Positions 33,901 to 36,900 of a stretch of 64,000 bases of DNA are shown here, one piece after another; the stretch's first letter is position 1; every line of letters begins with the position of its first letter. Origin of the DNA: Aquila chrysaetos chrysaetos (Eukaryota; Chordata; Aves; Accipitriformes; Accipitridae); NCBI RefSeq assembly GCF_900496995.4, contig NC_044012.1, positions 24,714,759-24,778,758 on the forward strand, in the 5' to 3' direction. Both the position numbers and the translations under genes were made by a program. The notes below the pieces were generated by a model. The model saw nothing but the letters and a program-made list of their open reading frames with translations. It did no database searches and was not told where the DNA came from.

Positions 33901-36900
33901 AAAACAAGATCCTATAAAGTCAAAGCCTCTGTGGGGACTGTTAAATGGAAAAGGAGAGATTCAGCAGCCAGCGAGACTGCAGGCTGGCTGATTGCTGCAG
34001 TTCAACTTTATTGTCTTCATGCCGTGTCATTGCACATCCTTCCTACAGCCTCGACAGCTCAGGGTGCCCTAGTGTTAGGGCAACAGCCCAGCTCTTCCTC
34101 TGTTCACAAGTGGGGCCCTAGACTGACGGCAGAGGAGCCAGTGTTGCATTTCTCACGCTGGAGCAGACCTCCTTCAGCATCGGCCTCTCTTCTTGGGTAT
34201 GTAAGAGATAAGGAACAAGGCTATTATGGCTTCAGTTCTCAAGTCTTGGTCAGAATGGCACAGGAGGAGCATTTCCAAGTCAGCACCCGCATCCAGGGGC
34301 ACAATGGGTCATATTGCACTGGTACTTGGAGAGGAACCCCCTCTGAGACCGGAGGCTGGGGGCAGGCAGGGCTTCTTAGACACTGCTACACTTAGAGAGC
34401 ATCCGGTGAATAAAGATTTACTTGCTGCACAGGTTCCTTACAGCTGGGACATCTCCTTTCTCCCGTTTGCCCATGTGACAAGGCACAGTCACAGCAGAAG
34501 ACATGCTGGCAGGGGGCCAGGCGTCCATAAATTCGGATGGGAAATCCACAGTGATGACAAAACTGAACCGTGGCAGCAGCTCTCTCCCCTAGAGAGTTAT
34601 TAAAGTCCCTGAGCACATGCCCAGGTACCCTGGTGTTCTCCAACATGCTCCCATCATTGCAAGGCCGAGTTCCTCCTTCATCCAGGCCTCCTTCAGCACT
34701 AGCCCGCACCTCCGAAAACGTCCCGCTTGGGCCCCTGGTGGCAGGAGGCATGTGTGCAACTTGGTCGTGGCTTAGCTTTACCAGGCTTGGTCCGTGACCA
34801 CCGAGACCAACCACTGATCCTGAGTTCTCAGTGCCTCGTAAGTCATTGAGGTCTGCGAGCAGGTCAGTCCAAGTGGAGGAATACAAGGCAGCCGGGGGCC
34901 AGTGCCTGGATCGTGACACGAGGGAGCAATTCAGATTTTCAGAAGAGAAGGAGCAAACGTTCTAACTTGGAAATAAATCAAGTGCAAAGCTTTAGCCCTG
35001 AGTAAGAACATGGCATTTGGCTCAGGGGGTGCTGGGCTGTCAGCTCTCCCGCCCCCAATTACTCATCCAGCAGCCTTTATCTATAGTTTCCCCCAGAAGC
35101 ATGACTAAAACTGATTTGTGTAACCAGGAAACAAGCCTAGTCATGGAGGAAACCTGCACCTGAGGATTCCTCTACACAGAAAGGGTGGTGCCTGAAAGAG
35201 CTGAGCGCTGGAGATGAAACGCAAAGGAGGTAGTGGTGGAAGCAGAGAACGGACTCAAGTACTTACTCCATCTCAGCAGGCTGTGGAGAAACGGACTGTG
35301 CAGCCAGCGAGGCTGCCTGCATTTGCTCTAAAGGTTTGTACTGGGTACCAGCTCCCGTTAAATCTTGCGTATATTGTACTACAGGCCCTTTGCTCCTGAC
35401 AGCACCTAGTGGGGAAGGGGAAAAAGCAAAGTATCAACAGGAAAAGCCTCCACCATCAGCCAAAGTTTCTTGCACTAGCCACAAAATATTGATTTAGCCA
35501 TTGAAGGCAACCAGAACAGAGGATTTGCAGTTAACACTGGGTCACCGGCTGAGCTCTGAGTCACAGCCAGTCACCCCAAACAGATTCTGGCCGCTTCACA
35601 CAACTGCAGTCTGGTTTTGTGGCATCTTTATGCCAGGAGAAAAAGCCTACTGTAAATCTTAAATCTCCAGGAGTTCTGCTAAAAAAAACCCACCAAAACC
35701 CAAAACAACCCACCCGCCCCCGCCAACCCACAATGCGTTCATTCAAATTCCAGGATACAAATTAAAACAAAAAGATGCCACATACCGACATTGGGACGAG
35801 TCCTTGCTTGTCCACTTTGCTTCTTTTCTTGGGTGGAGGCTGTGGAAGTTTTCATGCTGAACATGGGCTCAAGGCGTGTGGAACCTCGGTAAATCCACTC
35901 ACAACGTTTGTCATCCTGCAGCAAGGAGAAGGCAACACTCACAGCACCTATGGCAAGAACTTCCAGGGGTACCATACAAGCCTGGGAGACAGCAGTGTGC
36001 TTTTACGGCGAGCAGAATCAAATGGAAAGGAGGCAAAGCACTGACCTGAAGGCTCTTGAAAGACCATGCAGCCAAGAGAGGACAAAGGCAGTAATTCATC
36101 ATATCTGGGGGAACACTGAATACAAACCGAATCTAGAAAGAGGTCCAATACCAAGACCTCAAACCTCAAACACAGTTCTATTCTTAGCCCAACAACTGAC
36201 TAACGAGGCACTGTTGGAGAAACCAGACTCCCTCAGGGGACAAGCTAACTCCTCAGCACAAACCGAATCTGCTCTAAGACAGGGAGGTTAAATTTGCAAG
36301 CGCACAATGTCTTCCGCAGCCCCAGTGGCCATGCAGTTATCTAGACAGGAAGGCAGCCAAGCGGGCACAGATAGTATGTCTGCTCCCTTTCTGCAATTTG
36401 TAGAATATGAGCAAGCCCAATATCGCAGCTTCTGCTCAGTTTCTCTCCTGCTTCTCAAACCAGCACTTGTATTTGGACAGTAGACATGGCTAGGTGTTTA
36501 CATCAAGAAAGGGACCAGGAAAGAATGATGATGCAGGTGAAGGATTTTGCTTCTTATTCACCTACCACTTTAAAGTTTCACACGTGAAATGCTTTAAAAG
36601 GCTTTTGAAGCTTTTGTCATGCAAGTGGAAGAGTCTCACCATCACATCAGTGTGCAGTAGAAACTGGCAGTCTACCTACTAAGCAAAATACCTGCTTGCT
36701 CCAGGACCCTGTCTGACATTAGCAAGGAAACTGGACTTGATCAGCCCAACAGAGTCAGCCCTCCCCATCTCCAACTCAAATTTAAGCCCATCTTCCTTCT
36801 CTAATGGGAGAAAGGAAATTGCCCTACCAGGAAAAGGATTTTGACCAGACTGCCATCCACTTCTTCCACTCTGGATTTCCACCAGGTCCCTTCCCACTCT

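What the first reader, a model, noticed from the sequence alone, without database searches (positions are those of the whole stretch)
34392..34905. Intact Hakai/CBLL1-like RING frame inside a SETDB1 intron
A 170-codon open frame keeps all eight RING zinc ligands and the Hakai-specific context ([21 protein letters not shown]), plus N-terminal Hakai-like segments, with no intron. An unselected intronic relic would not be expected to stay open and keep every ligand. The phosphotyrosine-binding zinc region of Hakai is missing. I know of no such gene at the SETDB1 locus, so this may be an undescribed avian RING gene or exon.
Basis: partly seen in the sequence, partly recalled or inferred. Interest (0 to 1): 0.85.

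Follow-up and report, generated by a model that had tools for sequence, protein, structure and literature searches.

The report
Old Hakai gene copy inside SETDB1
A bird genome carries, inside an intron of the SETDB1 gene, an old intronless copy of the Hakai gene whose front half still reads as an intact protein and could be spliced onto SETDB1, although no transcript evidence was available to prove it.

Summary
A 170-codon frame plus stop (minus strand, 34904-34392) lies in a SETDB1 intron and matches Hakai (PDB, E 3.7e-17) with all eight RING ligands. The same genome has one intron-bearing CBLL1 elsewhere. The frame is colinear with CBLL1 exons 2-6 without introns: an old processed copy, single in this genome. 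It keeps the N-terminal block and RING; a net 2-base deletion and TAA end it just before the HYB part.

At the observed divergence a neutral copy should have gained stops and frameshifts (joint chance 5.6e-5 or less at K=0.2, lower above), and the RING changes are conservative (P 0.0015-0.005). Selection probably kept the frame for most of its life; recent death is not excluded. Pairwise dN/dS alone proves nothing.

Hakai's start codon is gone, so an upstream exon probably supplies one. The only phase-compatible acceptor before the conserved block joins the preceding SETDB1 exon in frame, and an AATAAA follows. Preferred reading: an alternative SETDB1 last exon giving a chimera with a Hakai RING, like TRIM5-CypA. 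The acceptor is weak; no RNA or orthologues could be examined.

The parts
34392..34905 (-). Hakai-like exon/frame from the proposed acceptor to the TAA: one base completing the junction codon, 170 codons, stop
34392..34961 (-). Whole open frame, 189 codons and stop, no start codon asked for
34906..34907 (-). Proposed splice acceptor AG; score 1.9, weak
34854..34856 (-). GCA at the place of the CBLL1 start codon (placed partly by eye)
   Evidence: alignment, CBLL1 exon 1
34773..34847 (-). Conserved N-terminal block [11 protein letters not shown]...VKL, 51 of 75 bases equal to CBLL1 exon 2
34566..34625 (-). Segment before the RING ([20 protein letters not shown]) facing the VIRMA-binding residues 87-105 of human HAKAI; only partly kept
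   Evidence: PMC8213727 passages; residue numbering by recalled human sequence
34416..34565 (-). Hakai-type RING, 27 of 50 residues equal to CBLL1, all eight ligands
34375..34391 (-). Remnant of the HYB-coding start right after the stop, 14 of 17 bases
34007..34012 (-). AATAAA, possible poly(A) signal
35267..35405 (-). Preceding SETDB1 exon, ends in GA|gtaagt (two bases of a codon)
32598..32757 (-). Ordinary next SETDB1 exon

Best explanation
An mRNA of CBLL1 (Hakai) was copied into a SETDB1 intron in the sense direction long ago. Its 3' part was lost (a net 2-base deletion leads to TAA; beyond it the likeness soon ends), but the N-terminal block and the RING were kept by selection. As its own ATG is gone, it is most likely read as an alternative last exon of SETDB1: the exon ending at 35267 is spliced to 34905 and the transcript ends after the AATAAA at 34012-34007. 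The product would be the N-terminal part of SETDB1, with its Tudor domains (from the literature, not searched here) but without MBD and SET, followed by a Hakai-type RING. Working model: the SETDB1 part takes the chimera to SETDB1 partners or sites and the RING recruits an E2 or a Hakai partner there, competing with or tuning full-length SETDB1. Shown here: origin from CBLL1, intact frame, non-neutral pattern, in-frame junction on paper. Inferred: transcription, splicing, protein, function.
For: Colinear with CBLL1 exons 2-6 with no intron; the 3/4, 4/5 and 5/6 junctions fall inside aligned sequence. Single copy. Neutral simulation: joint chance of no stop, no frameshift and 8 ligands 5.6e-5 or 8.9e-7 at K=0.2; at K=0.28 frame and ligands both survived in 0 and 2 of 4000 runs, at K=0.35 and 0.47 in none. 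Observed dN: 0.28 RING, 0.47 overall. RING changes conservative, P 0.0015-0.005; 23 changes in 50 residues spare all 8 ligands, P 0.004. Fewer base changes in the RING than before it, 38/150 against 127/282, P 7e-5. No ATG before the conserved block, which still matches CBLL1 at 51 of 75 bases. Of 165 AGs in the intron six give at least 100 open codons with the SETDB1 donor, and only 34905 keeps the whole frame. AATAAA on the same strand. Human SETDB1 has an isoform of only the N-terminal 400 residues (PMC10702034, passages).
Against: No RNA evidence. The acceptor is weak: above only 1 of 10 SETDB1 acceptors scored and 20th of 166 AGs in the intron. In-frame joining has a 1 in 3 chance and an AATAAA in such a length roughly 1 in 10 (my arithmetic). 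Pairwise dN/dS near 0.5 is also what an unselected copy beside a conserved parent would show. The whole-frame DNA score (99) lies within the neutral range at K=0.47 (39-115). The part of CBLL1 before the RING itself evolves faster (64-81% identity of exons 2-3 to the recalled human protein), which explains part of the RING contrast. Indel rates in the simulation are assumed.
Confidence: 0.4

Rival explanations
1. A stand-alone nested retrogene: the Hakai-like frame is transcribed from its own promoter, with its own 5' exon (or a non-AUG start near the old ATG), and makes a short RING protein independent of SETDB1, perhaps as a truncated Hakai competing in Hakai complexes.
For: Same selection evidence. 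A second AG (34854-34853) sits at the place of the CBLL1 exon 1/2 junction with another phase. Two in-frame ATGs exist further in (34751, 34646). Retrogenes with own promoters are common in general (recalled).
Against: No upstream exon or promoter identified; no suitable promoter tool was available. Starting at 34751 would leave the conserved N-terminal block untranslated, and neither ATG has a good context. The second acceptor scores only 0.8.
Confidence: 0.3
2. A former retrogene that died recently: kept by selection for most of its history, now silent, with the lost ATG and weak acceptor as first signs of decay.
For: ATG lost, acceptor weak; dN close to the neutral share of dS; nothing in one genome can show present use.
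Against: No stop, no frameshift and no ligand loss inside the frame yet, so death would have to be recent.
Confidence: 0.22
3. An unselected intronic relic or chance frame that stayed open by luck.
For: Pairwise dN/dS near 0.5 and the DNA score fit neutral decay at K=0.47.
Against: Joint chance of the intact frame and ligands at most 5.6e-5 at K=0.2 and less above; conservative RING changes. A random 170-codon stretch of this composition is open with chance about 0.00035, and chance cannot give the Hakai match.
Confidence: 0.05

Closest known systems
CBLL1 / Hakai E3 ligase
   Same: N-terminal block and Hakai-type RING with all eight ligands in the same order; derived from its mRNA
   Different: No HYB zinc region, no proline-rich tail, no ATG at the old place, no introns; 27 of 50 RING residues kept; another locus
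ZNF645 / CBLL2 (mammalian testis Hakai-like protein)
   Same: A second Hakai-like gene with a RING
   Different: ZNF645 keeps HYB and the Hakai architecture (PMC11749156, passages); that it is an intronless X-linked gene is recalled. The copy here lacks HYB and sits inside SETDB1 in a bird
TRIM5-CypA (TRIMCyp)
   Same: A pseudogene-derived copy at a host locus usable as an alternative 3' exon that makes a chimera (PMC2279257, abstract)
Human SETDB1 isoform 3
   Same: Only the N-terminal 400 residues, without MBD and SET (PMC10702034, passages)
   Different: No added Hakai part is described for it in the passages seen

Membership tests
Hakai (CBLL1) family | Hakai-type C3HC4 RING | tested here: met
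   E 3.7e-17 to 2mq1; PF00097 22.4 bits, cut-off 21
Hakai (CBLL1) family | HYB / zf_Hakai phosphotyrosine-binding zinc region | tested here: not met
   over cut-off only in CBLL1; no CBLL1 likeness downstream beyond 17 bases
Hakai (CBLL1) family | N-terminal segment before the RING | tested here: met
   score 94, shuffle maximum 51 of 2000
Hakai (CBLL1) family | Proline-rich C-terminal region | tested here: not met
   stop at 34394-34392 and no CBLL1 likeness after it
Processed retrocopy | Parent introns absent, parent exons colinear | tested here: met
Processed retrocopy | Target-site duplication and poly(A) tract | tested here: inconclusive
   one search lists four direct-repeat families, none a convincing flanking pair; expected to be eroded
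Chimeric retrogene (TRIMCyp type) | Sense orientation in a host intron, phase-compatible acceptor, poly(A) signal | tested here: met
   present in the sequence, but the acceptor is weak
Chimeric retrogene (TRIMCyp type) | Chimeric transcript or protein | not testable with these tools
   no RNA or proteome data held
Functional gene | Orthologous open frame with low dN/dS in other species | not testable with these tools
   no other vertebrate genome held; two searches found none in the bacterial/archaeal and viral collections

The most novel reading that the evidence does not exclude
Birds, and perhaps archosaurs, have an ancient TRIMCyp-like SETDB1-Hakai chimera: an alternative SETDB1 transcript in which the Tudor part is fused to the N-terminal block and RING of a retroposed Hakai, giving SETDB1 sites or partners their own RING and possibly tying H3K9-methyl silencing to Hakai partners such as the m6A writer.
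Probability: 0.25. Interest if true: 0.8.

Novelty: new variant of a known kind. Interest (0 to 1): 0.55.

Why it matters
Processed gene copies are few in chicken (78, in a genome whose LINEs are mostly CR1), and in that study chimeric retrogenes were screened only in zebrafish and frog (PMC3136929, passages). A copy kept open at this divergence inside the gene of a major transposon-silencing enzyme would be a case of domain capture by an exonised retrocopy in a bird. It would also be a Hakai derivative without the HYB region; PMC11749156 (passages) says HYB has been found only in CBLL1 and ZNF645. The claim is cheap to test with public bird genomes and RNA-seq.

Tried and rejected
AlphaFold2 on the single sequence gave pLDDT 37.3, pTM 0.24: not used, no fold search made. 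Relatives of the frame: 29 pattern matches and 0 relatives in genome contigs, 7 and 0 in viral contigs. CBLL1 5'UTR likeness upstream of the lost ATG: not beyond shuffles under three scorings (12 against maximum 15; 32 against 40; 101 against 142; 500 shuffles each), so the 5' edge of the copy is unknown. A 16-base direct repeat (34683-34698 / 34164-34179) suggested an internal duplication; 82 of 1000 shuffles reach its score, so dropped. Pairwise dN/dS as proof of selection: rejected, since it fits neutrality too; its 151 codons include 8 tail codons added by hand without a gap, where the frameshift lies. Loss of the downstream CBLL1 part as evidence: neutral decay would leave it detectable in all of 300 runs at K=0.28 and at K=0.47, but as low as observed in 4% at K=0.6 and 45% at K=0.8, and one deletion would explain it too. 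The bacterial promoter scan does not apply to a bird.

Full report
What is there. On the minus strand, from 34961 to 34392, an open frame of 189 codons ends in TAA; from 34904 on it has 170 codons. phmmer finds mouse Hakai in PDB at E 3.7e-17 and 4.9e-17 and the next family (RING2) only at 8.7e-5. Pfam gives zf-C3HC4 at 22.4 bits, just above its cut-off of 21. All eight ligands are present. The frame lies in the SETDB1 intron between the exons 35405-35267 and 32757-32598, on the strand of SETDB1; the MBD and Pre-SET matches lie further downstream. The host is a bird: 146 matches to Pfam Keratin PF02422 (the link of this family to birds is recalled).

Where it came from. The genome in which the window lies (1.23 Gb, 144 contigs) could be searched. 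With a recalled human CBLL1 as query it gives seven places: five are exons of one CBLL1 on contig C5, one is the window frame (E 7.6e-26), and one on C16 is weak (E 0.31). CBLL1 exon 1 lies at 16111797 and exons 2-6 between 16114599 and 16118078; joined, exons 2-6 give 488 codons and a final stop. The frame as query gives itself, two pieces of CBLL1 and ten weak hits (E 0.17-0.50) that were not examined. The 981-base region is found once. The frame is colinear with CBLL1 from exon 2 to the start of exon 6, score 280 against a shuffle maximum of 58, and crosses the 3/4, 4/5 and 5/6 junctions without an intron. That is the mark of a processed copy. A target-site duplication or poly(A) tract is not evident.

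How the copy changed. The RING keeps 27 of 50 residues and 112 of 150 bases; the part before it 34 of 94 aligned residues. NG86 over 151 codons, eight of them tail codons added by hand: dN 0.47, dS 0.91; RING 0.28 and 0.46; part before the RING 0.58 and 1.26. At the old start, two of three alignments place GACCTCAATGAC against GACCACAATGACAATGAT with six bases missing; the ATG before it is GCA here, by eye. At the other end there is a net 2-base deletion, TAA, and then 17 bases matching 14 of 17 the start of the HYB-coding sequence (0 of 50000 shuffles); after that no CBLL1 likeness beyond shuffles. So the stop is secondary and cuts the protein just before the HYB region. Pfam zf_Hakai passes its cut-off only in CBLL1 itself.

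Is it only a relic? Pairwise dN/dS near 0.5 does not decide, because a dead copy beside a conserved parent gives the same value. The intact frame does. In a neutral simulation from CBLL1 (indels assumed at 5 or 10% of substitutions) the joint chance of no stop, no frameshift and all ligands is 0.0056 or 0.0007 at K=0.1, 5.6e-5 or 8.9e-7 at K=0.2; at K=0.28, the RING value, frame and ligands together survived in 0 and 2 of 4000 runs before frameshifts are counted, and at K=0.35 and 0.47 in none. Given 23 changes in 50 RING residues, sparing the 8 ligands has chance 0.004. The changes are milder than neutral ones (mean BLOSUM62 0.26 against -0.71 to -0.80, P 0.0015-0.005 for three ts/tv settings). 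The RING has fewer base changes than the part before it (38/150 against 127/282, P 7e-5), although the parent also varies more there. Today's CBLL1 stands in for the ancestor in all this. I conclude that selection kept the frame for most of its life; death in the recent past cannot be excluded.

How it may be read. In-frame ATGs occur only at 34751 and 34646, but the conserved block [11 protein letters not shown]...VKL at 34847-34773 (51 of 75 bases equal to CBLL1) lies before them. A start should therefore come from an upstream exon or a non-AUG codon. Two AGs lie in the open stretch before that block, 34907-34906 and 34854-34853. The first has the phase of the preceding SETDB1 exon: the junction codon becomes GAG and the product reads ...[20 protein letters not shown]... 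through the RING to the stop. The second, joined to SETDB1, meets a stop after two more codons. Of 165 AGs in the intron six give at least 100 open codons with this donor, all in this frame, and only 34905 keeps the whole of it. An AATAAA lies at 34012-34007 and an ATTAAA at 33733-33728. Against this, the acceptor score of 1.9 (recalled frequencies) exceeds only one of ten SETDB1 acceptors (1.1-11.0) and ranks 20th of 166 AGs in the intron. Without RNA the splice is a proposal.

What it might do. Human SETDB1 has an isoform of only the N-terminal 400 residues, and in mouse ES cells monoubiquitination of SETDB1 by UBE2E enzymes is needed for its activity (PMC10702034, passages). A chimera would hold the N-terminal part of SETDB1 and a Hakai RING, without MBD and SET. 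In HAKAI residues 87-105 are critical for VIRMA binding; in Drosophila a RING mutant loses self-association and much of its contact with Vir and Fl(2)d (PMC8213727, passages). The matching stretch here is only partly kept and its Trp is replaced by Arg (alignment; numbering by the recalled human sequence), so VIRMA binding is doubtful. HYB, which forms the phosphotyrosine pocket (PMC11749156, passages), is gone. The safest guess is a RING without Hakai's substrate pocket, aimed by whatever it is fused to.

What is known. TRIM5-CypA is the nearest parallel for the mechanism (PMC2279257, abstract). Retrocopies are few in chicken (PMC3136929, passages). I found no report of this locus in these searches of an open-access library: CBLL1 with retrogene or Hakai (20 of 168 papers listed), ZNF645/CBLL2 (20 of 39 listed), SETDB1 with CBLL1, chicken and fusion transcript (7 listed, none with CBLL1), Hakai-like or CBLL1-like (2 listed, both on plants), SETDB1 short isoforms (20 of 884 and 15 of 109 listed). 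Papers on SETDB1 and m6A were seen only as a listing and are not used as evidence.

Verdict. Real, old, Hakai-derived and probably maintained; likelier an exon than an independent gene; expression unproven. A new variant of a known kind (exonised retrocopy), interest 0.55.

Noticed in passing
window 44078-44506, minus: A frame matches Pfam Cortexin (E 5.6e-14): a small cortexin-type protein gene upstream of SETDB1.
   Followed up: no
window 1804-2115, 10275-10734, 16043-16382, 43416-43855: Imperfect tandem-repeat arrays that coincide with long open frames of repetitive content.
   Followed up: no
window 33880-34395, plus: A 171-codon stop-to-stop frame on the opposite strand beside the Hakai-like frame; not searched, probably chance.
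   Followed up: no
window 34683-34698 and 34164-34179: A 16-base direct repeat (15 of 16), one copy in the frame and one after its stop; not beyond chance.
   Followed up: yes
own genome C9:25610676-25966104: Dense PF02422 keratin array about 1 Mb from the window on a contig at least 25.9 Mb long; in many birds this region sits on a small chromosome (recalled), so a fusion is possible.
   Followed up: no
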